DNA from: Antonospora locustae
Taxonomy: Eukaryota; Microsporidia
Assembly (NCBI GenBank): GCA_007674295.1
Contig: CM017461.1
Coordinates: 1 to 64,000, forward strand
DNA length: 64,000 nucleotides
Direction of reading: 5' to 3'
Shown here: positions 19,164 through 43,442 of the stretch, one piece after another
How positions within the stretch are numbered: position 1 is the first letter of the stretch
Layout: every line of letters begins with the position of its first letter
Translations under genes and position numbers: made by a program
Notes under the pieces: generated by a model
The model's database searches: none
What the model was told of the DNA's origin: nothing
Seen by the model: only the letters and a program-made list of their open reading frames with translations

Positions 19164-19422
19164 AATTTGAAAGAAAATGCACGATCGCTTAAAATCAAAT
19201 CGCGTTTCTATAGGGTTGTGATTCTAGGTTTTAAAAACAGGCATGAACTTGATTCTTTTTAAGTAGGTGGTTTGTAAAAGTAGGGTTATAAGTGTAAATA
19301 TTACATTGAGATGTACATTTGGTTCACAAAGATTTTGTTTTGTGTAACAGAGAACAAGAAAGAATATTGTTACTTTAAAGTCTTCTGCACATTATATTTC
19401 TATAAAATGCTATGAGGGTATT

Positions 19423-19467
19423 AATGATAATTTAAAGTCTTTTGACAAAAGACTTTAAATTATCATT
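19423..19467. repeat. Perfect 45-bp palindrome
   Basis: Left arm AATGATAATTTAAAGTCTTTTG (19423-19444) is followed by a single A and its exact reverse complement (19446-19467). It can form a 22-bp cruciform or hairpin. It lies 260 bp past the last gene. Confidence 0.9.
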
Positions 19468-19840
19468 CTCGAAGCACTACTCTGAATACAAAGTGCTTTC
19501 AATGAATGTCTTAGCAATTTATGTTTTATTTCGCGAATATAGGGGTTCCTTCATCAAGTGGGTAGTTTTAATAAAGTTAGGGTTACCTTAAAAAGACAAT
19601 AATCTGAGCACTTTCGAGAAAAGCGTAACAAAGTATGCACTTAGTTGTAAACAAAACAGAAATGTAGAGTCGGGTCTAACAATGAAATTCGAATGTCATT
19701 TTGTATATATATTCCTTATTGTATATGACTTCTTCTTATTTATTTAGATTTTACTTTTTCTTCCTGCGTGTTTTATATCAATCTAATAAAAAAACATAAA
19801 TGGTTTTCGTTAAAGAAAAGATGCACTGCACTCTCTGATC

Positions 19841-19860
19841 ATTAGGGTTAGGGTAGGTGA
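19841..19860 (+). repeat. Interstitial TTAGGG-type telomere-like motif
   Basis: ATTAGGGTTAGGGTAGGTGA holds two TTAGGG units plus a degenerate third. Single related motifs occur at about 19211 (TAGGGTT), 19281 (TAGGGTTA), 19576 (GTTAGGGTTA) and 19954 (TTAGGGTT), all with the G-rich strand on +. Inverse-orientation copies (AACCCTAA type) appear near 40705 and 42573. Confidence 0.6.
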
Positions 19861-21040
19861 CGATTCTGGGTTAGATATTTAAATAATAATACAATATTTC
19901 ATAAAAGAAGACATGTATGTAAAAATTATTAATACCCTCAGTTTATTTTAATCTTAGGGTTAAACAAAAAGTTTTGATGAAATAAGAGTTTCCATAAAGG
20001 CTGTAAATAAGATAAAGTCATAGTTAGGTTATGATGAAATTTAAAAGTAAAAAGTTACATTTTCTAAGAACATTGTTGTTTATTATTTGTCAAATGCGCT
20101 ATTGTTAAGAAGACACTTTTTTAATGACAGTTAAAACAATACCGTTTAATAAACTGGAAAAAACGAGCAGTATTCTTTCATTTTTACTTATTGAGTGCAT
20201 AAAAACTTACAAAAAAATTAACCCACAAAAATTAATTAAAACCCTATTCTTATAAATATAAAAATGACAACAGAACCAACTTGTTCACCATAGATACTAC
20301 ATTGTGCATTTGATATTAACAAATATTATACTCTATTTTTTTTAGTACAGTTTTGCTAATATTTCCATATTAGGAATATAAAACTTAAATAATTTTTTAC
20401 ATTTAGATAAGAGGTCTCTTTCATTTAACATATTACAAAATAGTAATAGCTGTTTTGTCAGTGTGATGAAATAAACGTGCGCTTTTACTTTAATTTTTTT
20501 ATGTCAAAAAGGGAATTTTAGTAGGTTTCTCTTCTCTCACAATAATAATTTATTTTAAATCAATTTAGTATTTATCTTGTCATTAAACGTAAAAAATTAA
20601 GAATTTAATAATAAAAATACTCAATTTATTATAATATAATTTTTTACATTACAAAATTATAACTAAATGCTAAAAAGAAAAAAAAATATGATTTATAAAA
20701 GTCGTTTAAAAAGTTATAATTGAAAACGGTAGATAATTTTTTCATTTACAATATAGATAATAGTCAGGAATTTTTTCAATATACCATGTTCAAGTCTGAT
20801 AATGTTTAATATTAAAATTTTCTATTTTAGTAAACGAAATTAGTTACCTAAAACTGCCATTTACATCAACAGCACGTAAAACTTTTCTCAACATTTCTTA
20901 ATTCGCGAACACTAAACCCAATTTTTTGTAACTGTGTCCTTTTATATTCGGTAATACAAAGCTATTTTTGGATGAGTTAAAAGTTAATAAAAATAACATT
21001 TTCTATAAAGCCTGACTATATATTAAAAGCAAAAGCTACC

Positions 21041-21092
21041 ACAACATGAATTTTCTCTAATGTGTTATTACATTAGAGAAAATTCATGTTGT
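21041..21092. repeat. Perfect inverted repeat, 23-bp arms, 6-bp loop
   Basis: Left arm starts ACAACATGAATTTTCTCTAA (21041-21063), the spacer is GTTATT, and the right arm (21070-21092) is its exact reverse complement. The arms are well ordered rather than simple AT runs, so chance is unlikely. Confidence 0.9.
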
Positions 21093-23584
21093 TAATAAAA
21101 CTATATATATAATGTTTTTAAGGCGATTTTAAATATATTTATATTTTTAGGTAACTTTTTAACATTGAATTTTAGGAGACCTTCTTAAAGCAACTCAAGG
21201 TTAAAGTCTACTCTATGGCTCATTTCACTCAACTTCGCAGGTTTACATATGCTTTTATTAATTTTTATTTTATAAGATAAAAGTTTTAGTTTAATGTTCA
21301 TTCTAAAGCTCTAATCAAAAGAAACAAAGTACTAAATAATATAAGAGAAAATTTAAATAACACAAATACTTCTCCGTTGAACTACAATATACGAAATTTC
21401 TATTACTACAAATACTTTTTTATCATGCAACTTTAACGCACATACAGTAAATATTTGAATTATTGAAATTTAATATCAAATAAAATATGCTTTAACTAAG
21501 GTTTGTATTTCTATATAATTATAGAAAAAGGACTTTTTAAGATTATAAATAGCCTTTTAGTTTTAATAGTCAAAAAATGTATTCAAATAAAAATTTTGAT
21601 TAAAAAAGTTTTAATTGATTCAAAGGATTATATATAATAAAATAAAACATACATACCATATAATTTTAAAAAACTTCAGCATTTTAATTATTTTTAGTTT
21701 TATAAAAGTTTTTTCCATTTATTAAAAAATTAATTTCATTTGATAGAGAAACAATTCTTCTAATTGTTATACCAAATTATACTTCTGTAAATAATTAGTT
21801 CCATAATACTTAAGTTTACCATTACTTTCTAGTAAGATTGTAGCGTAATACCTTCCACAGATCTATTGCGACTTTGTTAGAACAGAATTAAAATGTAAAC
21901 AACGAGTTCATGAGAAACTGAAAATTTTTTAAGATAACATTTTATTAAAATTTCCGAATTAAAAACCATCCTAAGTGTTTCTGCCAGTTATGGTTTACCG
22001 TATGTTGTTGCGCTTTGATTCACAAGAAATTTTACATAACATACATCCACTAGAGATAACTATTAATTGTCGAAGAATTATTATGCAGATAATTGTTAAA
22101 TGCAAATATGCGTTATAGATTATGCATCACATACTCCCTAGAAATATTAAAACTGTTTAACTTAAATAAATTATGGGTATTGTGCCATAACTGAGTTAAT
22201 TTTTTTCTTAATATTTAATCGGTAATTTTATTAATAAACATTTAAATTAAAAAGTATTTATATTTTACAATTATTTTTGTTTAAAATATAAACAGACACT
22301 TTTCAAACATTTTATTTACTTCTTTTATGAAACACCACTATTCACTTTTATAAATGATATATTTATATTTTTTATTCATTACATTTGTAAATTATTCGTA
22401 GTTTTAAATTTGTAAACATAAGGTAACATAGTCAATACTAACTAAAAAATATATTTTTTTTATAATATTAAAAAAGCACTCAAACATTAATTCTAAATAA
22501 TAGCATATAAAAGTTATTTATTTTTAATAAACTTAATTTTTTTTAACTTTAATTATAACATAATGAAAACTACTTCTTTATATGAATTTATAGTAATAAG
22601 ATTATGAACATGTTTTAAATTTATTAATTTTTAAACATATTCGTTCCCATTCATGATTATCAGGCTTAATTGCATTATATAAAGAATATATATAAGTTTA
22701 AAATATGCATATGATTTAAATTATTGATTATAATAAAAAGTTCACGTTAACATTAAACACAAAAAACATGTTCTTTTCTATATTTCTAATACAAAAATTT
22801 ACTAAATCTTGAAAAATAAGAATAAACTAAAGTATATTCACAAAAATTTCACAATTCAATTTAAAAATAGTTGTAAATAATTTATTTATCAAACATATTA
22901 TTGATTATAATATATGTCTCTAAAAAATAAAAATTATGAAGAATTAAATAATGTTAACATAAACCATATAAAAAAATAACAATGTTCTGTTTTTTTATAT
23001 GTTAGAATTTAATTATAATAATATTCCTAGGAAGGTGAGGAAATGCAATCACAAATCTAATGTAGGTAACAATGGATGAAACAACTATCTTTATAAATGC
23101 TATATTATAAGACCAATTAAGGATGCTCCTTCATATAAACAAGTTAAATTTATTTACAGACTAAAGTACAAAACGTATCACAAGCTGCAATGTGTTTTCA
23201 GTACGAATATATTATATGAGAATTTTATTAATAATATGTGTTTGATAAAAAGTAGTTTTAGTAAAAATAAAAAAGTTGTTTGTTTTTTAAGTTTTAACAT
23301 AATTTATTTTATATAGCAACCATTTATATTATATACGAGTTATGAAGAATAAACATATAAATGAAACTTTGCATTCACTAAGTGCATGTATTTATTGATA
23401 AATGTTGAATGTTATGAATAAAAATCATAATAAGATGACGAGGATTATAAATTAAAAAATAATTATATTATGTTTTTTTTTTGTACTTTTAATTTATGTT
23501 TTTATTCATGAATCATGCTTTACTAATACAAGAGACTTACGACCATTTCTCTTAAGCTTTTTGCAGCATCAAAAACCCAATTGA

Positions 23585-23692
23585 ATGAATGCAGTTGTGG
23601 AAGAAGTCCGAGTCATACATACGACAGACAAAGTAGTGCCTACATATACAAACGCAGATGCTCTTCAAGGAGTGAAAAATCTTCCATGGTAA
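23585..23692 (+). pseudogene. Small coding-like patch in the island
   Basis: A GC-richer patch with a 35-residue frame that begins MNAVVEEVRVIHTTDKVV and ends GVKNLPW. Base composition and residue mix are unlike random AT-rich frames nearby. No family was recognised; probably a fragment of a decayed gene or element. Confidence 0.3.
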
Positions 23693-25446
23693 ATTGATAT
23701 AGTTAGTTTTAAAAGATGTGTTTTTATTTCAATGATTCCACAACGCCTGAGAAAAACATACTAAAATATTATTATCAACATTTTCTTTATTTTAATTTTT
23801 ATCAATATTATTATCACCAGCTACGCTTATATAATTTAAAACATTTTGAATAATTTAATTTTTAATATTTTTGTCAGAACATGATATAAACAATTTTTAT
23901 TTAAATAACTGTTCAACAATAAAAATATAAATAATTATGTTATTTTGTTTGGTTATAACAAGGAATAGAAAGTTAATTTTTAATGTAACTGTTTTTATAC
24001 AATATACTTTGAATAAAAGTTGGAAGATGCTTTTACAATAGAACGTTTTTGTTGATGTTTACATAATAAAACTTTTAATCTTTATTTATTATGTGGTCAA
24101 GTCTACATATTTATTTTATATCTAGTAATAAAAAAATCAGCCCAAGTAGATTACTTTAGGGTGAATATGTATAGAAATATGACAAAGGTTATTAAGCCTA
24201 GTTCTTGAAAGGATCCAACAAGCTTTTCTCAATAACAATTTAAGTACAATAAAAATGACATTCATTTATGAATGAATTTAATAATAATAATGTCATATCA
24301 TTTTTATAAATTTAAATTAGATATTTTGCATAAATTTTATATATAGGTAGATATTATAACTCTGATTACATAATAAAAATATTTAAATGTTAAGAAACTA
24401 TGAATGATATATACCAAAAAATTATGAGTAAAAATGAGCAGCACAAAATGTAATTAATATGTTTGTTTAGTTTTTATAATATAAAATTCAGATAATTCAA
24501 TATTATTTCACATATATCATAGATTTTCTATTATATGTTTTGTATGGTACAAATATTATAACTAACATCGTGAATAATAATTATTATAGCATTGTCTATT
24601 ATTAAGTATATAGAAATTATAAAGTTTTTTATCAAAAAAATTTATGTATAAAGATATTAAGTTTAAAGCATATATACCTACCCAACGCATTATTCCATCT
24701 TTTCATTTTGTAAAGATATATCTTACATAAAGCAAATATTTTAATTTTTTTAATAGTTGTTTTTAATGAATCTTTTTTATCTAGCAGTTTTATTAAAATT
24801 TTAAAATTGATTAAATCCTAAAACATCTAATGTAGCCCACCATGGACTTGTTCATTTTGGTTAGCAGATAATATGAATTATTATGATATACTTATAAATT
24901 AAAACAATATGTTATAACAAATAGATTATTCATTTAGTCATTATGTTATAACAAATAGATATAAACATGTAATAAAAAACTGCTATGTAAGTTTTATCTG
25001 TAGTTATGTTAGCATTTGTCTTTCAAGTTTTAGTGTATAATTAAATCAGTATAATTAATTTTAACTAAATATTTTAAATTTTTAAACTATTATGTTTTTC
25101 AAGTTTTAGTGTATAAATTATATTATAAGAAACTAAAATTTTTAATAAAAACATATTTTTAATACAGTTTCTTTTTTCTTAATATCTTTTGTAAGTACAC
25201 ATACTTCTATATCATAAAAGATTTGAAATTGAGTTGACAAGACTAAAATCATTATAATAACTCTTCTCTTATATAGATTGTAATGGATTGAGAATTTAAA
25301 AACTCTTTATTCTAATCATTATTTAGGACACTTAAATGATATATATTAAGTTTAGTATGAATTCCTGTATGAACAAATAACTCAAACATTTACGTTTTTT
25401 TAGATAACAATTTTTATTCACATTCCCATTTTAGGTAATATTTATA

Positions 25447-25535
25447 AAATGTCCCGGCTGTTTGCGGCCCAAAATGTGCCTGTTGCACTTCAATTTGCAT
25501 GAATATTTATGCTGTATAACAAGAAATTTTTAAAA
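25447..25535 (+). pseudogene. Zinc-ribbon-like coding fragment in the island
   Basis: A GC-richer patch whose frame reads KCPGCLRPKMCLLHFNLHEY, i.e. a CPxC knuckle followed by a second Cys. It could be the zinc ribbon of a decayed transposase; there is no continuous gene around it. Confidence 0.25.
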
Positions 25536-27210
25536 TATATTGTAATTCTAAATTTAACATAATATTGATTCTAAGGTCTCACATATTATATTTGATATTC
25601 AAGTATTACAATACAAATATTTACATATAAAAATATTATTTTACAATTTTTATATTTGACTTAATTGGAATTATATGAAAATACGTATGTAAATTTGTTG
25701 TTTTCTATAAAAATGTTATTTTAATTTTATATTTAATAACAAAAAATATTGCGAAAACTAATCATGAGATTACTTTTACAAATAATTTTATAATTGTTCT
25801 GCATGAAGCTTAGCCATCAGTTTATAGCTGAATTAGATTTTCTGTTATTGTAAAACAATTTATATTGTATAATTAAAAACCTTTAGCTTTTAGTATGTTA
25901 AAAATAATAAAGTCAAACTTTACAACTTTTATTTTATATACTTTTTAACCCCTAAATTAAGTTCATAATAAAATAATATACAACAAAAGATAATTGAGTA
26001 CTTGTAGTATCATATGTATCTTAATTAATATTCATCTTAACACGAAAAAAATGCAAAAGGAACATATCATGTTGTAATCGGCCAGGGCATTTTAGAAATT
26101 ATTCCTAAAATGTTAATTTTAATAAAACTCTTACAAAAATAATATTATGCTACATTAAATTATATACAATGAGAAACGTACCCAATCATATACAAATTTT
26201 ATGATGTATATGGTTAAAGTTATAGAATAACCCCATTTCCTAATATTGGAATCAGATTGTATGCTTAATTTTTGATATATATATTATATTCAAAATATAT
26301 TGTAAAATTTATTAAAAATAGAATTCAAAATCGTAATACATTCTTAATGATATTTAAGTATAATAGAAATATATTATCAATAAAAACAATGATATTTAAA
26401 ATAACTACACATATATATATTGTATGCGTAATATGTTTTATGTAATTATATAAAATTTTATTTGAAACTGACTTTAACTAAACAAAAAAGTAGCATTAAA
26501 AGTAATTACATTTTTTGCATTTCCTATTAGGCGATGTCTTATTTATCCTTGATTTATAAGAAATGAATAAAATAGCTATAAAAATATTTAATGAAACATA
26601 TAACTAAAAATTCCTAAATAAAGTAGTTATACATAATATTGAATATATTAATTAAAGCTTTAGTTAAATGGATAAACACTTTTTGTATTTTTTGAAAGGT
26701 TGCAGTATCAAAATTAATAAGTAAAACCTTTAAATTATCATAAAATTATAATTTTATTTATATACAATTATTAATAAGTGTTTTAGTGTTTATTGAACTC
26801 TAACCTAACAAACTTAAAAAATCGATCAATATGTCAATTCGTAAATAATATGTTTTTATACATTCTATTTTTTTATTTACCTTATATATCTTTTGCATAA
26901 CAATATTTAATATATTTAATTTCATTTTCTGTAATAACTTAAAGTCAAAGTAAACTCTGCTATTTACATATTCAAAATTTTTTAATTACATTAATGTCAT
27001 ATTTAGTTAACAAGTATGTATTACGCGTATAAATAAATTCATTTTTCTGAAAATTTTAAATTTATAAACACTCTAATAAACTAAAAGCATAATGCACTAT
27101 TTGTATTTTTAAATATGAAGAAGTAGTACAATTAAGTATTTATTTTATGTGTGTGTTTTATTTATGTGCCCGTTGCTTATAGAAAAGTATACGTATAATA
27201 CAAATACTAT

Positions 27211-27277
27211 TTTATTAATATTTATTAATGTAATAATTTTATTAATATTTATTAATGTAATAATTTTATTAATATTT
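27211..27277. repeat. 27-bp tandem repeat
   Basis: The unit begins TTTATTAATATTTATTAATG. Two exact copies (27211-27237, 27238-27264) and a 13-bp third are present. Confidence 0.8.
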
Positions 27278-27780
27278 CCATGTTAAGAAAATTTACTAAA
27301 GCATCTCAGGTTATTGTACATTGTTTGTCCGTTGCACTCTTACATAGAAGTCATTTCACGATGCATAGTATCTCTTTGAGGGAGATATGAAGATGACCGT
27401 TGCCACAAACTATTTGTATCCCTTCTATTTATATCCTGTCCTCTCCTAGGAGTAACATCAATGTTTTATTGTTGACATTAAAAGAAAAAGAGAACAACAC
27501 TTATAAAACAAATACATAGACTATGTTATGATAGTTTTAAACACACTATTATTAAAATACTTTATTAATGAAAAATGTTGTTTGTTAAAGTTTTACAAAA
27601 TTTTCCCAACTGTTTGCTTGTTTAGTTTAATTTTAATCACAATGTTTATTTCTTATACATACACAAACTTGGTGAGGTTTATTATGTATGGTATTGGAAA
27701 CAGTCTCCAGCATGCTGTTTATCAATAACCATTTAGGTACGGGGAAAATATCCTTTATATATAAAAACTATTACATATAT

Positions 27781-27850
27781 AAAAACATTTTAAACGTTTA
27801 ATTTTCATAAAAAACATTTTAAACGTTTAGTTTTCATAAAAAACATTTTA
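27781..27850. repeat. 29-bp tandem repeat
   Basis: The unit AAAAAACATTTTAAACGTTT plus nine bases is repeated with one substitution, followed by a partial third copy. Confidence 0.7.
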
Positions 27851-30140
27851 TTAATGTTTATCATATATATTCTCTACTAATTACGATTATGTTGATTAAA
27901 TTGTTACTACTAACACATTTATAAAAATACATCAAAATTAATAGTAATGTTTTTTAATATATATTTATTTAATAAAATAGTGTAACTTACTTTATAATAG
28001 TTATTATAATGATATTACAATAACTATTGTTATGTAAAAATTATAGAGAAATTAAATTCTAATAACTTATAATATTTTACTTGTAAATAAAAGTCGTTTT
28101 GTTTCCAAATTAGAAAATTATTGATATAGATACACTTTTAAATCCAATGAAAAATTATTTTTGTATTTAAATATATCACTTATGTTTATGTTTTTTATAT
28201 TAAATTATATTATATTTTTTTTACATTACAACTATAAAATTTATTATAAACGTTTAATTATAAACTATATTTTATGGTGTTAAATAAGGAAACATAATAT
28301 ACTTTTTTGTTAAAGATTAAAATAATAAATTTATTCCTTTAAGTAAATTATAAACAATAAGCTTAGGTTAAACTTGATAGATAATTGAAAAGTAACTTTT
28401 CACTGAAATTTTAAACAAATCACTAGATTCATGTTTATTTGAATAAAATACATAGTAGAATAAAATCGTTAATTCAAAAAAAAATTAAAAATCATGATTA
28501 ATAGTTTAACTTAATGTATTTACAAACTTATAAAAAATTTTAGGGCAACTATACAATATGTGTTGTTATTGATTTTTAATATTCTTATAGCATAATATGT
28601 CCTAAAGCATATATTTTACATAATACAATTTCGATTCTTTTTAAACTATACTATATTTTTATTACTAAACTATCAAGATAAAATTGAAAATTGTTATGTT
28701 TATTAAAAACTTTTTATATTTTATAAATTTCCTCAGATATTCACTTACATCTTTATTTTTACAAACTTCTAAATATAATATGTTATTTAATAAATTGTTA
28801 AATGTTTTAAACATTAGTGACAGTATCCTTTTGTATTGTTAATATATTTTTAATATACAAAAATTATTGTTATTAATAATTTGAGTAAAAATAACATAAA
28901 AAAGTTATATGGGTCAATATTTTCGTTTTGTATTTATAAATAAAAATTTATAAGGTAAATAAATATTGCATCATTAACGTCAATTTTCTCATTGTAAAAC
29001 AGTCACAAAATACGGTTTTTGGAATTAGATTTAATTAAACTATCATTTTCTTGCACAGTTTTCATTCCCATATCTTAATTTTGTGCCTATAATTTCATAC
29101 TACTTGAAAACATGCGTTATAACATTACTATAATAAACTATATAATAATTAAGTCAATTCTATAAAATATATACAAACATATTTAAAAAAATAACAAAAC
29201 TGTGATAAAATCAACATACCAACATATATTACAAAAAATCTCAAGTAATATCATAGAATAAGGTATAAGTATAACATACAATATTGTAGTAACACACTCA
29301 GTTATCTTATAAGGTCTTTATTATAAACAGAATATTTTAAATTATAAAATGGATTATTAGATATATAAAATAGAATTGTTTACATTACACAATATTTTTA
29401 ATTGGTTATAAGCATACTTGGTTTATGTTACATACATATAATAAATAATATTTTACTTATAAAATTATTTTTTTTGGCTTATTATTTAACTAAAAAATGT
29501 ATTTGTTTTATTTAATTATTAAATTAATTAAAAAAGACAGATTTAGCCATTTTTATTATTTTAATCTAAATTTTAATGACCTAACATAATAATAGAAGAA
29601 AATATAATTGATAATAAATATATCATCAATAATAGTATATAAAAATATTGTTTAAAAAATGTATTATTTGCTAAAGATTAATACTATATGAATAGCTAAG
29701 ATAAAAATGTTTATACATTAAATTACAAAAACCTTTAAAATGGTTCAGTAAAAAATTAAATTTATTTAAAAATTTATTACATGTTCGTATAAAAATATTA
29801 AGAAATAATATGTATATGAAACTAAATAGAAGCAAAAAATAGTTATATAAAGCCTACTGAGCTTTATTAATATTAGTTAAAATAAAAAAAACTATTGTAA
29901 CAATTAAAATTTAATAAAATAACTTAATTTTTTATTTAAATTAGTTATTTAAAATATTTATACAAATTTTGCAAATATTATTAAAACCTATACTTTGAAT
30001 ATACATACTATGAAGATTGAAGCATAAATAATATATGTATCTTTTACTTCTACTTAGTTAAGATCTTATTTAAAAATTTTTTAAAGCATTAGTATTCAGT
30101 ATTATGGTAAATATTGTGTTTCAGCTATGAAGCTAAGTAG

Positions 30141-30281
30141 AACAACAACAAGCATGGTTGTAGGCCGAAGAAAAATATCAGAACAGATGGGCCGTTTCAG
30201 GGAGGGGCAAGCACAAATGTAACAAGAAATTTATTGATTTATTTCTACAGACTGTTTAAAAATAACAATTTGGGTTGTTAA
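30141..30281 (+). mobile_element. Transposase-like relic, copy A (possibly Merlin/IS1595 type)
   Basis: A 46-codon open frame in a GC-richer patch. It reads KHGCRPKKNIRTDGPFQGGA and then STNVTRNLLIYFYRLF. The pattern of a Cys, basic residues, 'IR-x-D/G-x-F' and then a hydrophobic LLIYFY helix resembles the zinc-ribbon/linker of IS1595-type (Merlin) transposases, which are known in microsporidia. Related diverged copies occur at 31355-31690 (-) and 36030-36125 (+). Family assignment is tentative; the repeat relationship is what the sequence shows. Confidence 0.4.
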
Positions 30282-31354
30282 AATATCCTTTATAAATAAA
30301 AATCTTTAATTAAACTATAACAAGAACAAAAATAAAGGTTAATTATAACAATAGATAGATACAAATTATTTAATGTTTATAAAGTATATAAAATTTAAAA
30401 TATAAATTACATATATATTAACATATAAAACTATTATCTAATTCAAGTAAAATAATATAGAACTATGAAAATAATTTGCCATCAAACTTAATAAATACTT
30501 TATTACATTAGTTATCATAAGATTAATATAATGCAGTAAATCATAATAATTCTCATTTTATTTTAGAAATCTAATATGTAAAGAAAACTGTCAAATTTTA
30601 CTTAAGTCGATATAAATACAGTTATTACAATAGGAATAAAGTTTAAGAAACATAAAATAATAATGTTATGTAAATTCTTATTAATGTAAAAAATGATTAT
30701 TAAAATTTTGAACTTCTCTACAAATACATAATAATTAAAATATGATTTTAATTAAAAAATGATAAAGAATATTAATATATGTTATATGCATATACTAACT
30801 ACAATTTGTCTGATGCCTTTATAATATTTCAAATTTATAAAAAACACAAACATTTTTTGAAAATAAAGGATATAATTTTATACACATTCTAACATTGTAA
30901 TATTAAATTAAAAATAAGTCATTAATGTAATAGAAATCTTATTATAGAATAATAACTATATATTATAAATTTGAAATTTGATTGTATAACTATTGATTTA
31001 ATTGTATTATATCTTGTAATTAGTACATATATGTGTATTTATATTTTATTTTAGTGATGTTATTTTTATGCATAAAGAAGCTATAACAATATTCTTATGT
31101 AAAAGTTAGTTAGTATTAAAAAATATTTTAATAAACTTTTTTATAAAACATATTGGATGCAATATTCTTTTATGTAATTATAACTATTGATTATATTTTT
31201 TCAAGACTACCATTAAACTCTTATAATGCACTTCCATATACACAGAAAGTACTTAAATAATACTGTTTATTAAAACACATGTTACGATTTTTTAAAAAGG
31301 CTTTTTTCGTTATGTCTAAATTATTATTGTAAAAAAGTCCCTTGAAAATTGTTT

Positions 31355-31690
31355 CCTGCAACCAAATCAATAAATCTCGTTACATTTGTGCTCACACTCT
31401 CTACAGCAGCCCAAATACACCGAAATTCTTCTTTAGCCCACAATCATGCTTGTAAATAGTTCATTATAGTGCTTGAATATGGGCCTTCAACATTCTTCGG
31501 GATTCCAATCTTCTTTTGATAATTTTTGTTGTATAGAGTTACTACACTTTCCCACGTCACCATATAAAAATTAAATTTACTTTATACCTGTAGATTCCCT
31601 TCTGTTCGACAATAAGTAACACGTACTTGCGAGCTTTTGCAATCACAATCTTTTACGATTTCGCCAAAAAATGATTCCACCTATATGATG
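31355..31690 (-). mobile_element. Transposase-like relic, copy B (frameshifted)
   Basis: On the minus strand it carries the copy-A block with roughly 70% similarity by eye: AAGCATGATTGTGGGC near 31451, and AGCACAAATGTAACGAGA followed by TTTATTGATTT near its end. The translation KHDCGLKKNF and, after frame changes, STNVTRFIDLVAG parallels copy A. Upstream within the same GC-richer patch another open piece reads VKDCDCKSSQVRVTYCRTEG. The frames are interrupted by stops, so it is dead. Confidence 0.4.
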
Positions 31691-33598
31691 TCATTTCATT
31701 ATTATTATCGTGGACCACAACAATATAGTACAATATTATTTATTTAAAATAAAAATACTCATTTACAATTAATACAATTTTAACATAAATAATTAGTAGA
31801 TGATTATACATATATTATACTTAAAGTATAAAGTGTTATATTATAATAAAATTTTTATTAACTTTTACAATTTTCAATAATATATTGATAATTGTTTTAA
31901 CTTTAGTACTTACTTTTATTTAATCATAACCATTAGTTATTATATATAATGCTCCTCACAAATATGTATATAAAGTTTTTATAATTTTATAATATTAAGT
32001 CGTACAATTTAAAGAAAAATATTTTTAATATAAAAAACACAATCATTTTATTAAAATTCTTTTAAACTATATTAAACTATATTAAAACAAAAAATATTAT
32101 TATTTCACATAATAAAGTAAATGTTTTAACTGAAAAAATTTTATTATGTAAGTTAATATTTACTATTAAATTTTTTATAGTAAATATTTTCGACAAAATT
32201 TCTTAAAATAATTTTAATTTCTTTCTAACACAAAATTTCAATTCAGAACAAAAGCACACAAAATAAAAATTAAACTATAAAACTTTCTATAAAACATGTT
32301 GTGTCTATAAAACCTCTTTGACACAAAAAGAATGGTTGGTTTCTTATATTTTTATGTTTATTTATACAATAATTTACAATGACTATAAATTGAAGTTGTA
32401 CATAAATTTTAGTTTTATTTATAAGATATTTTGTAATTTTAAAGAAATAGTTAATTTTTTAAATTATAATAATGTCTTTATCCCTAACACGTGTAAATAC
32501 GCAAAATGTTATATAAAATAAAATACAGTATATAAAATATTTATAAATATCTAAAAATAGAATTTTTGATATTATAAAATTAATTGAGAATAAACTATAG
32601 TAAATATTATCTATTACTATTTTTTGTGTTGGATTAATTTTTATTATATTATGCTGTATTTTTTTAAGTATATTAATACAACATAACCATTTTATTATTT
32701 ATATATTTTGAAACATTATTATCTTACATTATTTTAACGTTAATATAATTTTCAATTAACAAACATCCTTAAAAAGATTTTGTTTTGTTATAATTTTTTA
32801 TTATTTTTAAACAACAGTTTTATTAACAAAATTACATCATAATTTAGTAATTCTTAATGAAACCCACATTAGGTTGATGTTTACTATGTACTTTTATGTC
32901 GTGAATTCTATTTCACAAAATTATTAAGTTTATTATTTTGTTTAACATCCTTGTTCATTTGCAAATAACAGATCAAATTATATGGTAGTTTTCATTATAA
33001 TTATACTTAATGAATTTTTTTAGTCTTTCTCTAGAGCAACTTTTTTTTTATAAATAGTTTTTATTTTATGTTGTATTTTAATTTTGTATTTACAATGTTA
33101 TTTTGAAGAATATTATAAGTAAAAACATATAACGTGTGATGTACAGTAATACAAAAATATGGATGTTATAAAGATAAATAATAATATCTATAAGCATATA
33201 CACAATAGTCATATTGTTTGTATAACTAAAAAACATTGATGAAATATGTCTTTGAAATTTCAAAGAAAAACTAAAAGAACAATATCATATGTATAAATTT
33301 ATTTAATCAAAAACAAAAGTTTTACAAGGTTTTAAAATAAATTACTTTTTTATTATTATTGGTAAAATTCTTAAAAATATCTTATGTATTCTTAAACTTT
33401 CGCATACATTGCAATTTAATTGTCAAACTTTTAATGAAATTTGTTCCTGAATATATCTTAAATAATAATCAATTGAAAAGGTTTTATTGAAAATTATTTT
33501 TGTCTGTATAGTACATACATCATATAGTAAGAATACATTCATGAATTTATATTATATATATTCTTATAGAGAATATATACATAAAACTGTATTTTGAG

Positions 33599-33927
33599 CT
33601 TAATAATATTATTAGTTATATTATTATAAAAAGATTATAAATTAAAATAACATTATTAGTTATATTATTATAAAAAGATTATAAATTAAAATAATATTAT
33701 TAGTTATATTATTATAAAAAGATTATAAATTAAAATAATATTATTAGTTATATTATTATAAAAAGATTATAAATTAAAATAATATTATTAGTTATATTAT
33801 TATAAAAAGATTATAAATTAAAATAATATTATTAGTTATATTATTATAAAAAGATTATAAATTAAAATAATATTATTAGTTATATTATTATAAAAAGATT
33901 ATAAATTAAAATAATATTATTAGTTAT
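33599..33927. repeat. 44-bp tandem array, seven full units
   Basis: Units start at 33611, 33655, 33699, 33743, 33787, 33831 and 33875, each beginning ATTAGTTATATTATTATAAA, with a partial eighth at 33919. Units are nearly identical (one C/T change near 33651), so the array is recently amplified or homogenised. It lies near the middle-right of the island. Confidence 0.95.
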
Positions 33928-35461
33928 AGCATAACAAAACTGTAATTAATAGTATTTGCAATAATTTAAGTGCATTTTTAATAAATTGTAATAAAAATGA
34001 GTTTTCAAACTAATTTTTTATAAAATACTATATTAAGAAATTTTAATAAGTTTATTAATGTATAAGATAAGCCCTTTTATTTCATTATTTATATATCTAT
34101 TAATAATTTAAAAAAACACAAAATGTTATTTAATATATCATAACTAAACTGTTAGTTGAAAATTTTTAATAAACAAAGTACATTGTTATTCTAAAAACAA
34201 TAGAACTTAAACACAATATTTATTTAGTTAGATTTAACATAGTATACTCTTATTATCTAATCTAAATAAAATTGTTATTTTTTTTACATAATACAAAAGT
34301 ATAAGTTAAAAAATGCTGTTTATAAATTAATAAAAAATTACTTATTTTAAAATTTTCACTTTAAGTATTTTACTTGTAAGTTTAGTTATTTAAAGATTGC
34401 TTTAGCCATACAGGTATATGTTTGTAAATAGTATATGGTAGTTTGTAATATTTAATTTTTATATAAATTTAAAAGTATATTCATTATATTTATTTAGAGT
34501 AATTACATGTTTATGTTTTCTCAAACAATTATTATATATTTATATTAACTATATATTTATATAAATGAACAGTCTATTAAGAACATATAATTCACATTCT
34601 AAATAATCAATAAATGCATTATAAAATATATTTATTATAAAGTTTGGGTTTTAAACCAATATACTTTCTATTTTATGATTAATTAACTTTTTGAATATTT
34701 TGATACACAAATTAATAATTATATAATTTTTGTATATATTTAAAAACTAAATATAATTTACATTCATAATCTATTTCTGATCATAAGCTTAACTTTTTAG
34801 TTAACAACTTTATTAAAATTCTTTAGTTGAGAGTCATAATGAAGAATCCTGACCATTTATAGTTTATACTATATTCATTACATTTGATTTGCAAAAGCTT
34901 AATTTCAATATTAATATTATAAGTATTTTATATGTCTATGAAATAAGTATTTAAATAGTTTCAATAAAGATTAAATTTTAAAAACTGAGTAAAAATATAT
35001 TATCAAATTAATTGAAATTGAGATAGCATATAAATAATAAAAATTTAAATTTATATAAAATTTATAATAAGTTAATTATATTATTTTTACACAAATTTTA
35101 AATCATGAAAAATGTCTATAATAACATTAACTTAGATATTCCCTCTATAGTTATCAACTGTCAAAGTATTTTTAAAATTAAAACCAGGTTAACTTTGTTA
35201 TATAAAATGTTTAGTTATATGTAAGTATGTGATTTAGTTAAAATTGTAAAATAATAATTATAAAACACTATTTTGTAGGTGATAACAGCAAATATTATAA
35301 AGTATAATTATTCACTAATTATTAATAATAAAATTGACATAAAAAGATTAGCAGTATCTTTTTTCTAAGTTGGATAAAAATAATATCAAACTAAATTACA
35401 TAATAAAAAGTTATAAAAGTCACAATTATGTAATGTTTCTTATTTTTTAGAAAATTATTAA

Positions 35462-35614
35462 ATTTATAAGCATATTTATGCTCTTAAGAGTGTACAAGAT
35501 GTAGTTAATATGCTGAACATTCATGGTAACAGCCACTTTACTGTATGCGGTATTATCCAACAGGCAGCAAATTCATCAAGGTATGGCCGCTATGTAATAA
35601 CTTCTGCGAACTAA
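35462..35614 (+). pseudogene. Coding-like patch in the island (50 residues)
   Basis: A GC-richer patch with one frame open for about 50 codons, including ALKSVQDVVNMLNIHGNSH and then TVCGIIQQAANSSRYGRY. It looks like decayed coding DNA of unknown family. It lies 400 bp before relic copy C and may belong to the same element. Confidence 0.3.
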
Positions 35615-36029
35615 AGTGCAACATGTACATATAATAGGATAACCAGTATGTATTCTTTAATAGCTTCATAAATAGTGAATATCAATAAATTGCTGTTACC
35701 TTTAAAAATCAGATTTATGTAATATAACAATAACTCTTGTAAAATATTATTTATTTTTACATAAAAACTTAGTCTAAAACAGCTCAATATAAGAATAATT
35801 ATATATAAGTTATTTTATTTATAATTCATTTTGTTTTTTTTTATATTATAAAATCTGTTAATATGATTATAATTAAATTTCTTAAATACATTTAGTTACT
35901 GAACTTATAATATTAATTTTTATAAAACATAACATTAATTTTTTATAATATTGTTGTATTTCATAAAAATTAAGGTTTGAATTGAAAATATCATGTTCTT
36001 CAATATTTGGCATTAATAAAAACCATTGC

Positions 36030-36125
36030 AAGCATGATTACTAGCCAAGAAAGAGTATCGTTGTAATTATGCAGCTCTAGGAAGGGGCCGTCCATGAATA
36101 CAGCGAGGTTTATTGAATCTGATAT
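36030..36125 (+). mobile_element. Transposase-like relic, copy C (most degraded)
   Basis: Aligns with copies A and B from AAGCATGATTAC through GGAAGGGGCC to GGTTTATTGA. The equivalent translation KHDY-stop-PRKSIVVIMQL-stop-EGA contains two stops. Confidence 0.35.
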
Positions 36126-39100
36126 TCAAAACAATCTTTGTATGCTATTTCACAATACCTATTTGAGAGTAGTGAGATTGCTATTCCAACAAACTCATAT
36201 AAATTATGTTTATAATAATAAGTTTTACATTACTCATTATACAATCAAAAAATAAATTGATTATATTAACTTTAGTTGTATAAATATTTAAAATATACTT
36301 ATTTAAGTGGAAAACAAAATACTTCTATGTATAAATATAATATAATACAAATTAAACTGTAAATAATTTATAAAAACAATAATAATATTCAATATAATGA
36401 ATTTAATTATAATAATAATTATATAAGAAATACAAAATATGTTATAACAACGTTTATATTAAACTATTAACATAGACTCATATATTAGTTAATATTATTA
36501 AGTTAACAAATTATCAAATTTATATATTTACTATTTTTATTCTGTTTTGTATCCAAAATTTATTATAATGATTATTATATAATTTTTATCAAACAGTACA
36601 TACTATTAATTGTTTATTTAATTTAACTAAGACTTTGAGTAACAAATTTATTAATAAAATTTTCAAATAGGAAATTCAGAACAAAACGTTCTAACATATA
36701 CATTTCACACTTTGTTTACAATTTAATTTAAAAATACAATTAACACAATATAAACATTTCATTTAGACTATTATGTGATATATCTATACATCATTTACTT
36801 TTACTTTTTATAAAACATTTTACAAATTATATGCAGCAGTATTGTATACAGAATATTCGTTCCATAATATCTTTTCTTTTAGATATTATAAATACTATTC
36901 GCAGTAACACAAGAAAAATATTAGAGTTTTAAACAATAATTAATATCTAATAAATGTATGATATTAAATAAGAAAAGGGATTAATCTATTAATCTAAATG
37001 TAATATCATATTTAACAGTTTAAAGATAGTTTATAAAAACTATATTAAATGTTTTTGATTTGCATTGATTTTTAGTAACTTTTATACTAAATACGAAAAC
37101 AATGTTATATATCACTTAAAACAAGGTATATTATATAAATTTGAATTTGAATTATCGCCTTATGTTTAAATCATTTAGAGAAATAATAATGAATATTAAT
37201 CAATTAGTACAGAATTTGGAAAATGTTTTATGTTTAAAAATGATTTTAATATATTTTTTTGTATTAAAAATTGTTTAATTAAATTATATTAATGCAATAA
37301 AATGTTTTGTGTTGTAATGAACAGGAAATATGTTTTTTAATATATGAATAAAATTTAAACTAAAGTGTATAGAAGAAAAATTAAAGCTATAAATGACGAC
37401 ATATAATTATGAAATGATAGAGTCTCTTGTTGTTATGTTGTGTACTCTAAATATTTTCTACTTAATTTTATAAAATATAAGATATTTTTAAAAATTTACT
37501 TTTATATTATATCTTTGACAAATATCCTTTTAAAATTCTCAGTAAGTGCTGAAAAATTGTCTATTATTATATACAATGTACTTTTTATAATGTGTGGATT
37601 TAAATTCTGTTAATTAAAGACTCTAAAGTTTTTATTTTAGTTGTTAATATATGTTGTAAACAAATGTTACACATTTATGTACATAAACCTTGATGATATG
37701 GTCTCTCTAATTAGATAATAACTAGGACAAAATAAAAAAAAATGAACAATAATAATAAAAGTCGAAAAACAAGATACTATTCAAAAGTTATAATAAAAAG
37801 TTAGCTTATAATAAATTATTTATAATAATGACTTTATTCTCATTTATATGTTGAAAAAGTTTCCTAAAGCTTTTTACGTTTCTGACCTACTATTTGCATG
37901 TGCATTTGGTTCTTGATTTTTTAAAGTAGATGGATTATTTAATAGGATTTTTAATTTAGTATATGTTATAAAATTATTAAGTTAGAAAGAAACTATAGCT
38001 TTTATAGAGAACAATATTGTATGTAATTAATCAACTGTTATTATTTTACTTAGATTACTTAGACTTCAATCCTAGTCAAACTATTATTATCCAACAATAA
38101 CAATGTAAATCTAATAATATGCAGTTATAGTTGATAAAATAAAGATAAAGAACAGTATAATTTTGAGTAATTAATAAATATATATATACTAAATGAAAAG
38201 TTAATATTATTCTAAGCATAAATCAATACATAAAATAATAAATTAATAGATACTTTAATTAAACAAATCATAAATTTAATTTCCAGTGTTTAGAGCATTC
38301 ATTTTCTTTATATTTTAACAAGTTATAGTTTGAGTTGCGGAGGCAAAATACATAAAATTGGGTAACATAAATATTCAATAGAAATCTTAATAAACCTGTG
38401 TCTAAATTCTATCCAACATGCATATAAAGGATAGGCCGGAAATCGAATCTAATATATTTGATTTCGTATTCAATTATAAGTTGAATAATGAAATAATAAC
38501 ATATAATTTTTATTGCTTCTTTAGAATGGTTGAGATGGCTATATTTTTGTAAGATTATAACTAGAACTTATAAATGCAAACTTATGGAAGAATATATGTA
38601 TAAGAAGACTGTTTCATAACTTAGTTATTGTATTAGAAGATGTGATCCATATCATGTTTGGATTCTAATAGATATTATATAAAATGTTTTACAGATTAAC
38701 ATTCTACAATTTTATTTGTGAATTATTTACCTTATAAAATTTTTATAAATAATCATCCTAACATGCATCGCAAATTTATAACATTCAATCAGTTCATATA
38801 ATACCTATTGGCTATTTTGTATATTAAACTTATATATAAAGTTTAGTGTGAACATATTTTTCTTAAAGAAAATGTAAGAATTATACCTATACTCTTTTAA
38901 ATGTGATTAAATGAAAATATTAATAATATATGTGTAAATGTTGAATATTGTTTATTTTATTAAAAATTAGGAATGTTACAGCTCAATTTAATTAAATTAA
39001 TCTAACAATAAAGATATTTTATAACCTCATATATTATAATTATATTTGTGTATATTTTAATAAAAATTTAATTAATTTTTGTATTATTTTTAAATAAATT

Positions 39101-39414
39101 TCTATATTTTTAAATTATGTTCTGTCATTTTCAATAGTTTATAACTAGTGATTACAATTTATTTTGTTTAGCTATCAAGGGATAGTCATAACTTTCAAAA
39201 AGCTTCAAAAAATTGTTATAATGCAAAATCATATGTTTATATTATTTTTTGCTTACTTTAACTATATATTATATAAAAATCTATCTATAATATTATCTTA
39301 ATTATTCATAAACAAAAGAAACACATATGTGTATATGTGCGTTTACAAGCTTTTGCTTGCAGCATAAAAAAATGAACTTGGTCCTAGTTACAGAGAATAA
39401 TAAGGATTTGATAG

Positions 39415-39756
39415 AGATGCGTTTCTGTTTGCACGCATCTTGCGGTCAGAGGGCATGCCAGGAGAAATGTAAGTCGGCCTGTCAATGATGAGGATGCAGA
39501 GCCCTTCTGGAGCAGTACAGGCACAGTAGCAGATTACGACAATGTCTCTTTCAAAAAATTCAAAGAATATGACGCAACAGAAAGAGCATCATAAGTGGAG
39601 ATGGTGCAACAGCAACGTATCTTTACTCGGTCATTCGCTGGTGAGCAGAAATACCCGAGGAATGACAAGCCGAGTCCACCCCAACATAAGTGCAAGTGTA
39701 CGCGGTCTTTGCCCAAATTCCCTGAGTTACTGCTAAAGAAAGTGGCGTTTATTTAA
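39415..39756 (+). pseudogene. Decayed gene fragment: 113 codons with one internal stop
   Basis: The largest GC-richer patch in the island. One frame runs from 39415 to a stop at 39754 with a single in-frame TAA at 39592. Before the stop it reads NVSRPVNDEDAEPFWSSTGT and then VADYDNVSFKKFKEYDATE; after it, VEMVQQQRIFTRSFAGEQKY and then PPQHKCKCTRSLPKFPELLL. Residue usage is protein-like on both sides of the stop. Family not recognised. A relic of a captured gene or mobile element is likely. Confidence 0.5.
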
Positions 39757-42638
39757 TTTTTTCAATATGAATTCCAAACAACCTGATAATTATTCTCTTT
39801 AATTACAAAAATTATATAAGCCTGTTTCTTTGTTTATAATTTAAAATTAATAACATTTATATTACATTTTTTAGTATTAAACAAAAATATAATATAAAAA
39901 AATTATTTAGTTATAAAATTTTTATAATGATTTTATTTAGTAACATAAAATAGCATAATGTCATATTTAATGATAATGTTAATTCTATTCAATTTTCCAA
40001 TTTAATATTCAATATTTTGTAAATATAAAATTTTACTTACGATTTTAATTTAAAAAATTGCTAAGTTATTTTTAAAAAACACTAATGATTATTATATATA
40101 GACCATGTCTCTTTTTACAATAAAGTTTTCCAAGTAAAGAAGATTAAAAAAAGGAAACTTATTATTATAATTAATAAAAAATTAACAATATAAGTACAAT
40201 AAAGGTTAATGTCTAAATGTTTTATTTTATTAAACTATGTTCTATTTTTTTAACTACTATTTTAAGTGTTTTTAATATTATTTTTCAATGTTTTTATCAT
40301 ACGCTATAATTATTAAGTTGTAAGATAGTTTGTATTATGTTGTATTATTGAAGATTATAAAATTATTTTCCAACCTTTGGCATGATAAAATGAAATCATT
40401 ATTACATAAAGTCTATTTAAATTGACTAACTTTATATATTTCTGAATATTTAAGAGTTTTCTAAATACTTTTTTTATAAACATTTTGCACATCGTTTTTA
40501 CCTAAAATTCCCATAAACTAAAAAATTCAAGACTTACGGAAAAATAATATTTTGATCAATTATCTTGAGACAGCTAACTGAAACATAGTCAGTATTTTGC
40601 ATAATATTCTTCAAATTATATTTTTTAATTTTCAAACATCTTGTCTATTAATATCAACGATTTAAAATTACTATTAACAATATTATTGTTAATGTAAAAT
40701 TTGTTTAACCCTAACAATATAAAAAGAAATAAAATTTAACTAGAGTTAAATAAATACTATGTTCGTTACAAAAATTGATTATGTCTTTTTCTTAAAACAT
40801 CTTTTAAACAATAAGATGATTGATTATGTACAACAATTAACAAAATAATGTAGGAACACCATTCTTATTTAAATTATTTCACATTTAAATTGTATTTTGT
40901 TTATAACTTCAAGTTCTAAGACAAACAGTCAATTGCTTTTTTTGTACAGTTGAATATCTGTATAATTATTATTTATAAAAATGTTCTTAGAAGAGAGTAT
41001 TATTACAAATCTTGTTTATTTAAAAATGTTAAAAAATTATTATTGTTTTTATTTACTAATTTATTATAAACATGTGACTTTAATATTATACTATCTTCTT
41101 ACAAACCCGGAATAAATTTTTTTATATTATTTTTTAAATATAAAACATATAAATTTAACCTAAAAGAAATACAAATGTGTGTTTATAATTATTTATCCTA
41201 TTTATTGTAATTTTAGCATAGTACTCATTATTATATGACTTTTTATTTATAAAATAATGAATGTTGAGATATTTAAATATTTAACATTGTTTGTCTTAAT
41301 AACAACTCTCTTAGACACATTTGATACACAAGTATAGATGTTTACTTAAATTAAAAAATGATACCGTGTATTTTTTGCGTTTACAGCAAATTTTACTATA
41401 TCTCTGATGTTGTAACTTCAATAGTTTTCATGATTTTTAGACTATAATTAGAATTTCTTTATTATATGTCTTGTTGTAATTATGATGAATATTATAGTCT
41501 TTGAGCACATTCATTTATTCAGGTTTGATAGAGTATTTATATTACTTATCAGTATTTTTATTCAAATCTACACACCCTATGTTATCGGATATCAGCACAA
41601 AGCACAAATTCCTAGTAGTTGCAGGTTAAAGGAAACTTTTTTGGCAGGTTGTAGTAAATAATCATAGTCTCTGACAAAACAATAAATTGTAAATAATTTA
41701 AAAGCCATCATAAAGAGTTTATCTTATTAACTTCTTCTTAAAATACATATAGAAAATGTAAAATATTATACACACTTTCTTTAAAAAATATACAGAAGAA
41801 ACTACTGTTCTTGCTCTTTTTATTAACTTTATTATTTATTAGTTCGATGATGCTATTTAAACCAGAAGGCTGTTTCACCTGTAATGTAAAATAGAAATAT
41901 ACTTTTTCATTGTTGTTTGTATAATTAATACATAGTAATAGTAAGGGTTATTGAGTGTACTGCTGGAAAAGGTCTTTAACAGTCAGTTTTATGTGTGAAT
42001 GACTATAACGGACTTTCTATAACCCTTATGGGATATATACACCAACTTTATTGAAGTTAGTTTATTCTTTTTGTTATTATTATTTTATTTTTATGCTTTA
42101 AACGTAAATTTATGATCAGCAGAGTATAAAAAAACATTATAGTGCGATTTCAATAACTCTATCTATCTGTGATTAAAAATACAAAAACAAGTCTTTAATT
42201 TAATTCTTGTTGTCTTACATCCCTTTTGGGCATATTTTATTTTTATTATGTTTATATCAAAATAAATTCTATTATTTCTCTTTTTTATTGTATTTATAAC
42301 ATGCATAATTAACATCCTACCTTCGTTGTCGGAATGTCAAGTTTTTATGTGCACAAAAATTCTAAAAAGATCTAAAACACATTACTTAGTTTATAACTTT
42401 AGGTTTTGTTTATGCTTCTTTTGCATAAAATTAGGAACATAAAACAATGTAATAAGCTTATTCACTAGTAATTATTAGAAATAAAATATCTCCAATTTTT
42501 TATTTATGCACACCTCCTAGATCTAATTGTTAGTAGTATCCCTACAAATAAAGATACAATCATAGAGAATAAAAACCCTACTTTTATTTACTAAAAACAA
42601 AACCATTAAAGATGTAAAAAAGCAAGTCCAAAAGTCCT

Positions 42639-43442
42639 TTATTTCACAAAGGCTTCTGTTTCTCTCAGTTTGAAATTGGTTGCTACAGCTATCGCTATTG
42701 AATTCCTTGCACAATTAATCAATAAATACGGCACAGAAGCTTTTGTAAGCACTTCCGTGGCTAGTGACAGGGAAGCAACCCGTTCTATGGTCTTTTTGCA
42801 CTTTTCAATAATATCTTCCCTCTTAACATCGATTATCCAGGGCTCGTAGTAGCTCCCATTCTCATAGATCAACCTGATTTTCATTTCGTAGATAAAAGGA
42901 TGAATATCAAGCAGAGAAAGGAGATTCGTCTGTGCAGGACCAACCTTGACGCCTTCTTCCAGAACTTTTATTCGCGATATGATCTCCAGCTTCGATCTTG
43001 TTATTTTGTACGAGATCCCCAGTGCCTGAAAATACGGCGCCTTTTCCGAGTCCATGCTCGTTATCATCGGCTCAATCCACAAGTCCTTTTGCGCTATAGC
43101 ACCAGTCTTTGCACTTGCCTTTCTCTGGTTTTCCTCAATTATCTTCTTGAGAAATCCTACATCGTCATTCGTCAGAATAAAAGCCACATTTCCTTCTATT
43201 GCACTCATCACATCTTTGTATCTTGGATTGTCTTTGAAACAATCGTTTAGTGCTTTTCTCATTGCAGTGTTCTTCCTAATAACGAATTCGCACTTGCCTC
43301 TCCATGCCTTCTTACACGCTTGGAGCTGCGAAGACGTCACATTATCCATCTGTACAACAAGAAACTTGTCGTATTTCTTGAAAATTTCCGCTGTTTGCTG
43401 AAAGAGAAACTCCTTTCTTTCCTTCCTCAGTGCTTTCAACAT
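42639..43442 (-). CDS. RPP0: 60S acidic ribosomal protein P0 (uL10), truncated C-terminus
   Basis: Anchors the ribosomal stalk to 25S rRNA. 267 residues with the ATG after CCCCC. N-terminal uL10 domain: RKERKEFLFQQTAEIFKKYD, FLVVQMDNVTSSQLQ, EFVIRKNTAMRKAL, NVAFILTNDD; the eukaryotic insert domain follows (SKLEIISRIKVLEEGVKVG). The protein stops at VATNFKLRETEAFVK, where other P0 proteins begin the helices that bind P1/P2 dimers. The Ala-rich hinge and the acidic GFGLFD-type tail that recruits elongation factors are absent, and reading past the stop in the same frame does not restore them. It is the first gene after the AT-rich island, ending about 40 bp from it. Confidence 0.95.
   Translation of the reverse strand: MLKALRKERKEFLFQQTAEIFKKYDKFLVVQMDNVTSSQLQACKKAWRGKCEFVIRKNTAMRKALNDCFKDNPRYKDVMSAIEGNVAFILTNDDVGFLKKIIEENQRKASAKTGAIAQKDLWIEPMITSMDSEKAPYFQALGISYKITRSKLEIISRIKVLEEGVKVGPAQTNLLSLLDIHPFIYEMKIRLIYENGSYYEPWIIDVKREDIIEKCKKTIERVASLSLATEVLTKASVPYLLINCARNSIAIAVATNFKLRETEAFVK

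What the first reader, a model, noticed from the sequence alone, without database searches (positions are those of the whole stretch)
19164..42638. 23.5-kb AT-rich island in a gene-dense genome: candidate regional centromere
Sharp composition change at both edges, no convincing gene for 23 kb against about one gene per 1.1 kb outside, and a repeat/relic content typical of regional centromeres. Microsporidian centromeres are poorly described, so a single block of this kind per chromosome would be notable. Core genes (USO1-like, P0) sit directly at the borders.
Basis: partly seen in the sequence, partly recalled or inferred. Interest (0 to 1): 0.8.

Follow-up and report, generated by a model that had tools for sequence, protein, structure and literature searches.

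The report
AT-rich centromere of a microsporidian chromosome
A 23-kb gene-free, AT-rich stretch in a tiny insect-parasite genome is very probably a centromere: a similar stretch turned up once, and only once at the sampling used, on nearly every chromosome, in a group of organisms whose centromeres have not been confirmed by experiment.

Summary
The island is real: 14-32% GC per kb from 19 to 42 kb against 39-56% outside, with no ATG-initiated ORF of 80 aa or more. The window is contig C15 (132,192 b) of a 17-contig, 3,170,203-b genome, most likely Antonospora locustae (recalled).

Among 120 evenly spaced 500-b samples of the 16 other contigs, the 14 points below 26% GC lie on 14 different contigs (permutation P about 1e-4); C6 proved to have a block too. 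With C15, 16 of 17 chromosomes show one internal block, never two at 22-24-kb sampling. C9 is the exception: GC-poor but largely coding.

The genome encodes a CENP-A-like H3, CENP-C and Ndc80. The block holds six old copies of a short dispersed repeat also seen in other blocks. Best reading: an AT-rich, epigenetically maintained regional centromere. Occupancy was not testable. One 2026 paper mentions GC-poor centromere-like regions of A. locustae in a sentence; a 2025 survey found no compositional centromere in its species.

The parts
19164..42638 (.). AT-rich, ORF-free block; proposed regional centromere of contig C15
   Evidence: one-per-chromosome pattern
17679..19163 (+). left border gene, 494 aa, 3' end facing the block; identity unknown (USO1-like not supported)
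42639..43442 (-). right border gene, ribosomal stalk protein P0, 3' end facing the block
   Evidence: PF00466 and PF17777 above cut-off
19423..19467 (.). hairpin, 22-b arms (at most one mismatch), 1-b loop
21041..21092 (.). hairpin, 23-b arms (at most one mismatch), 6-b loop
33602..33928 (.). 44-b tandem array, 7.4 copies, 99% matches
24161..24265 (+). degenerate dispersed repeat (family R1)
27655..27760 (+). degenerate dispersed repeat (family R1)
30208..30295 (+). degenerate dispersed repeat (family R1), not used to build R1
31292..31401 (-). degenerate dispersed repeat (family R1)
36083..36189 (+). degenerate dispersed repeat (family R1)
41926..41991 (+). partial copy of the dispersed repeat (family R1), not used to build R1

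Best explanation
The block is the regional centromere of this chromosome. Proposed working: within about 20-25 kb of gene-free, AT-rich DNA, CENP-A replaces H3 in some nucleosomes; CENP-C binds that chromatin and links it through the Ndc80 complex to spindle microtubules. Its place is inherited epigenetically rather than by a long shared DNA sequence. AT-richness follows from long absence of genes, probably with suppressed recombination, and old repeats are left to decay there. Shown here: composition, absence of genes in this block, one low-GC block on 16 of 17 chromosomes at the sampling used, presence of CENP-A-like, CENP-C and Ndc80 genes, no long sequence shared with other blocks by the search used. 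Inferred: CENP-A occupancy, epigenetic inheritance, the cause of AT-richness.
For: One block per chromosome: in 120 evenly spaced samples, 14 points <26% GC lie on 14 of 16 contigs, P 9.5e-5 over 200,000 permutations; C6 confirmed at 18-20%; the 25 of 131 non-C9 points that are <30% form one run per contig with no higher point inside. Blocks are internal: midpoints of the low samples at 0.20-0.68 of contig length, and none of the first 10 kb of 15 non-C9 contigs has a 500-b window <30%. From, 15 of 113 non-C9 points are in blocks, which gives my estimate of about 24 kb per block, close to the 23.5 kb read here. Kinetochore: CENP-A-like H3 on C14 with a loop 1 five residues longer than the genome's two H3s, 57% identical to a Hamiltosporidium protein named 'centromeric'; CENP-C C-terminal domain above the Pfam cut-off, 30.2 vs 29 bits (33.5 in the genome search); Ndc80, 136.7 bits; a chromo-domain match in a 190-aa frame. 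No long shared sequence: the query 22,700-42,638 matched only two 59-69-b stretches elsewhere, on C1 and C7, both in or within a few kb of those contigs' low-GC samples (that search skips simple repeats and scored 2 of 3 candidates).
Against: No CENP-A, CENP-C or Hi-C data. C9 (171 kb; 20 sample points plus its first 10 kb) shows no comparable block, although its samples are at most about 11 kb apart. Sampling at 22-24 kb leaves small second blocks possible on most contigs, and 7 blocks rest on one 500-b point. Absence of genes was read in full only for C15; elsewhere it is inferred from short samples. The CENP-A candidate's best PDB matches are ordinary H3.3 chains, not CENP-A. The CENP-C match to a solved fungal CENP-C (cnp3) is weak, E 0.025.
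Confidence: 0.82

Rival explanations
1. The blocks are another once-per-chromosome landmark, such as a heterochromatic gene desert, a replication or nuclear-envelope anchoring region, or the relic of a former centromere in a now holocentric lineage.
For: Composition alone does not show kinetochore assembly. PMC12449221 (passages) raises holocentricity for microsporidia. C9 shows no such block.
Against: CENP-A-like and CENP-C genes are retained; CenH3 loss accompanies holocentricity in insects (title and start of abstract of PMC4359364, listing). A single internal low-GC block on 16 of 17 chromosomes is hard to explain otherwise.
Confidence: 0.13
2. Assembly artefact or foreign AT-rich DNA (host, symbiont, organelle) joined into the contigs.
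For: Sharp compositional edges; reads were not available to test spanning.
Against: Blocks share a degenerate repeat family with other parts of the same genome: a profile made from 4 copies outside the blocks finds 5 copies in this block (E 7e-16 to 8e-5) and one in the C1 block, with 0 hits in reversed and in 10 Markov controls. Low-GC samples of the same kind occur on 15 other contigs, once each.
Confidence: 0.02
3. Transposon graveyard: the block is a pile of decayed mobile elements with no role in segregation.
For: Six R1 repeat relics in 23.5 kb against one in the 40.5 kb outside within the window.
Against: Genome searches found one reverse-transcriptase match (C2:200289, not in the C2 block), no integrase and no IS1595-type transposase. 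R1 copies cover about 2.5% of the block. Random TE accumulation would not give one block per chromosome.
Confidence: 0.03

Closest known systems
AT-rich regional centromeres of fungi (Magnaporthe oryzae; short ones in Malassezia)
   Same: Long (Magnaporthe) or short (Malassezia) AT-rich sequence; the review PMC7385547 says all fungal centromeres then identified lie in ORF-free regions and many are AT-rich (passages).
   Different: Those were characterised in dedicated centromere studies; here there is sequence only. GC falls to about 20% in a 3.2-Mb genome, so blocks would take roughly 11-12% of it (my estimate).
Candidate regional centromeres of Microsporidia sp. MB (PMC13174016, passages read)
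   Same: Same phylum, gene-sparse regions away from the ends, proposed for all chromosomes, CENP-A gene present, positions unconfirmed.
   Different: MB regions are GC-rich, CpG-methylated and marked by LINE and Ty3 LTR elements; these are GC-poor and without recognisable retroelement genes. That paper remarks in one sentence that 'similar regions in A. locustae' show lower GC.
Encephalitozoon centromeres (PMC10158259, passages read)
   Same: Epigenetic centromere inferred, with a stand-alone H3 variant proposed as CENP-A.
   Different: No compositional candidate in chromosome cores there; subtelomeres were proposed. Here the candidates are internal.

Membership tests
Regional (monocentric) centromere | Occupied by CENP-A/CENP-C chromatin | not testable with these tools
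   no ChIP or CUT&RUN data; the genes exist
Regional (monocentric) centromere | One locus per chromosome | tested here: met
   16 of 17 contigs, at 22-24-kb sampling; C9 is the exception
Regional (monocentric) centromere | Kilobases long and without genes | tested here: met
   for C15 only: 23.5 kb, no ATG-initiated ORF of 80 aa or more; longest frame within shuffle range
Regional (monocentric) centromere | Centromeres cluster in Hi-C maps | not testable with these tools
   no Hi-C data
AT-rich fungal centromere | Clearly lower GC than the rest of the chromosome | tested here: met
   19.8% vs 45-50% in the flanks
Point centromere (budding-yeast type) | Short conserved sequence shared by all chromosomes | tested here: inconclusive
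   22,700-42,638 matched only two short, weak stretches elsewhere, but that search skips simple repeats and common words and could miss a short motif
CENP-A (C14:98073-98420) | H3 fold with longer loop 1 and divergent N-tail | tested here: met
   five extra loop-1 residues against both H3s of the genome, 39% and 34% identical to them; that these features define CENP-A is recalled knowledge; PDB matches favour H3.3
CENP-C (C4:203336-203575) | C-terminal domain PF11699 | tested here: met
   33.5 bits by genome search, 30.2 bits by hmmscan, cut-off 29

The most novel reading that the evidence does not exclude
This microsporidian is monocentric with long (about 20-25 kb), AT-rich, sequence-independent centromeres taking about a tenth of an otherwise gene-packed 3.2-Mb genome, visible from sequence alone. 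This contradicts the idea that microsporidian centromeres leave no compositional trace. Chromosome C9, GC-poor but coding and without such a block, carries a centromere of another kind or a young one.
Probability: 0.6. Interest if true: 0.82.

Novelty: new member of a known kind. Interest (0 to 1): 0.74.

Why it matters
A 2025 survey of microsporidian genomes found no centromeric region by GC or repeats in the species it studied, and noted holocentric or epigenetically defined centromeres as possible (PMC12449221, passages). Here one species shows a single, plainly bounded candidate on 16 of 17 chromosomes. That gives coordinates for CENP-A mapping, and asks why a lineage under extreme genome reduction keeps gene-free centromeres that are large relative to its chromosomes.

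Tried and rejected
Merlin/IS1595 transposon relics: some island peptides reminded me of this family (recalled), but the genome has no PF12762 match up to E 1, and ten chosen peptides gave no Pfam match up to E 10 apart from one at E 0.12. The peptides around 24.2, 27.7, 30.1, 31.3 and 36 kb lie in or beside R1 repeat copies read as protein; the others were not followed.

Pfam relic scan: only 2 of 6 frames and only 19,164-33,001 were scanned, stops read as X: 0 families up to E 0.1. Not complete.

blastn of the island against itself is worthless: AT-rich DNA aligned to itself widely at about 56-60%. Discarded.

A looser cut (<29.9%) gave 16 points on 16 contigs, reached in 0 of 200,000 permutations; I do not rely on it because the C9 point in it carries a long open frame.

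C9 as contamination by another species: not supported by the one gene tested. C9 holds the genome's only pyrophosphatase match, and a C9 protein has relatives at 100, 87, 81, 59 and 52%, comparable to those of the CENP-A candidate at 89, 89 and 87%. C9 also has a second NF-YC-like gene (L169, compared with L172 on C2; named by eye). Unresolved.

R1 repeat enrichment: 11 copies in 35.4 kb of block sequence against 5 in 319.8 kb outside (E up to 0.01; length-based P 2.6e-8; L054 at E 0.042 not counted). Six of the ten copies that built R1 lie in blocks, four outside. Gene-rich DNA has little room for repeats, so per intergenic kb the excess would be only about threefold (my estimate from the intergenic share). 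I therefore do not claim R1 as a centromere-specific element.

Composition likeness of other blocks: their GC was the criterion of choice, so the agreement in GC (17.7 vs 19.8%) is no independent evidence.

Rfam: 0 matches at gathering score in the window. tRNAs: 0 in the window by ARAGORN.

Literature: the A. locustae genome paper that PMC13174016 cites (Chen et al. 2020) is not held, so I cannot say whether it describes these blocks. Searches.

Full report
What was given. A reader saw a 23.5-kb AT-rich island without genes at 19,164-42,638 and proposed a regional centromere of a microsporidian.

Observation. Confirmed. GC drops from 45% (18-19 kb) to 32% (19-20 kb) and 14-27% (20-42 kb), then returns through 30% (42-43 kb) to 43%. 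Between the left ORF's end at 19,163 and that of P0 at 42,639 there is no ATG-initiated ORF of 80 aa or more, though 87 such ORFs overlap the window. Absence of ORFs is partly a consequence of composition: the longest stop-free frame in the island, 84 codons, is inside the range of 30 shuffles of its core (71-136). Both border genes point their 3' ends at the block. P0 is confirmed; the left gene has no Pfam or PDB match, so the label USO1-like is unsupported.

Where it lies. The window is C15:1-64000 of a 17-contig, 3,170,203-base genome; C15 is 132,192 b. I recall these totals as those of Antonospora locustae, a locust parasite; no call names the organism. PMC13174016 calls the A. locustae assembly chromosome-level with 41.6% GC, but lists it with 18 scaffolds, not 17 (passages). 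The named relatives of the CENP-A candidate are Hamiltosporidium and Gurleya, both microsporidia by recalled knowledge.

The decisive test: how many such blocks per chromosome? First, the first 10 kb of the 16 other contigs and 50 kb more of C15: only C9's first 10 kb contains any 500-b window below 30% GC. Then 120 points of 500 b, about 21-24 kb apart, on the 16 other contigs: 14 points are below 26% GC and lie on 14 different contigs; random placement gives 9.4 contigs on average and reached 14 in 9.5e-5 of 200,000 permutations. The lowest point of C6 was 29%; extra points gave 20% and 18%. Further points bounded some blocks: C8 at least 17.0 kb, C6 12.1-28.5 kb, C1 10.5-32.5 kb, C5 10.3-31.4 kb, C12 10.4-30.8 kb, C13 9.1-32.3 kb, C16 8.8-30.6 kb, C17 10.3-32.5 kb. 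The other seven (C2, C3, C4, C7, C10, C11, C14) rest on one low point each, with high points about 22 kb to either side. In all, 25 of 131 non-C9 points are below 30%, and on each contig they form one run with no higher point inside. From the even sample (15 of 113 non-C9 points in blocks) I estimate about 24 kb per block. With C15, 16 of 17 chromosomes carry one internal block.

The exception. C9 has GC near 30% over much of its length, but most of its samples carry long open frames (up to 166 of 166 codons), so it is largely coding, GC-poor DNA. Its 20 sample points are at most about 11 kb apart; between 15 and 28 kb five of six points are at 24-29% with frames from fully open to about 60% open. 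No block like the others was seen. C9 also has 9 of the 45 tRNA matches listed for the genome (63 of 124 candidates were scored, so counts are lower bounds) and the only pyrophosphatase match.

Kinetochore genes. The genome has ten histone-fold matches up to E 0.01. Two encode H3 with the canonical tail, one of them beside H4 on the opposite strand (named by eye, Pfam confirms the histone fold). A third, C14:98073-98420, stands apart: divergent tail, loop 1 longer by five residues, 39% and 34% identical to the two H3s but 46-88% identical to the six relatives aligned (of 15 found), among them a Hamiltosporidium protein named centromeric. Against it, its best PDB matches are H3.3 chains. CENP-C is present by its C-terminal domain (30.2-33.5 bits, cut-off 29), with a weak PDB match to 'inner kinetochore subunit cnp3' (E 0.025). 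Ndc80 (136.7 bits) and three chromo-domain matches are present.

Inside the block. A 44-bp array; two hairpins with 22- and 23-b arms, where each of three sets of 15 Markov sequences averaged at most 0.07 with arms of 18 or more; and six copies of an old dispersed repeat. The repeat is real: a profile from four copies outside the blocks finds five copies in this block (E 7e-16 to 8e-5) and one in the C1 block, with none in reversed or ten Markov controls; copies in the C5 and C8 block samples were not significant in that test (E 0.08 and 0.47). A genome search with the C5 copy at 2.2 kb found C1:147560, in the C1 block, C14:75090, about 5.5 kb from the C14 block sample, and C9:102421. Over all sequence held, 11 copies lie in 35.4 kb of block and 5 in 319.8 kb outside, but most of the outside is genes. 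No integrase or IS1595 transposase match was found in the genome, and the single reverse-transcriptase match is on C2 at 200 kb, far from the C2 block sample. CpG is moderately depleted (0.66 against 0.87-0.92 in the flanks; 0.73 in the 14 other block samples), which is compatible with, but no proof of, methylation.

Interpretation. A gene-free AT-rich block, with one similar low-GC block on 15 other chromosomes, internal, without a long shared sequence by the search used, in a genome that keeps CENP-A-like, CENP-C and Ndc80 genes, fits AT-rich, epigenetically maintained regional centromeres. Occupancy is inferred, not shown.

Prior knowledge. PMC12449221 (passages) found no centromeric region from GC or repeats in its species; the term 'locustae' does not occur in it. 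PMC10158259 (passages) could not place centromeres in Encephalitozoon and favoured subtelomeres. PMC13174016 (passages) proposes GC-rich regional centromeres in Microsporidia sp. MB and says in one sentence that similar regions in A. locustae show reduced GC. So the idea is touched on in print; I found no description of the blocks in the listings of searches or the passages read, and the original genome paper is not held.

Noticed in passing
G000:C9 (L012, L103-L109, L145-L152, L175-L179): A chromosome at about 30% GC over much of its length with long open frames, 9 of 45 listed tRNA matches, the genome's only pyrophosphatase match and no AT-rich gene-free block seen; its compositional difference from the other 16 contigs is unexplained.
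   Followed up: partly
window 19211-19961: TAGGGTT occurs 5 times in 1.1 kb at the left edge (shuffle mean 0.1, highest 2 in 2000 shuffles; motif chosen after seeing it), including TTAGGGTTAGGG at 19842: possibly degenerate telomere-like sequence at the block edge.
   Followed up: partly
C5 and C12 starts, C15 end (L008:49, L015:10, L024:9940): These three contig ends share a 20-base word chosen by eye, and no telomere-type array was found in the 21 ten-kb pieces scanned (16 contig starts, one contig end, four internal); the assembly ends look subtelomeric rather than complete.
   Followed up: no
window 382-619 and 6063-6227: Tandem repeats inside predicted ORFs of the gene-rich flank; the second reads in frame as an alanine-rich repeat.
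   Followed up: no
G000:C2:200289-201038: The only reverse-transcriptase-domain match in the genome search, in an 849-aa open frame; telomerase is a possible identity, not tested.
   Followed up: no
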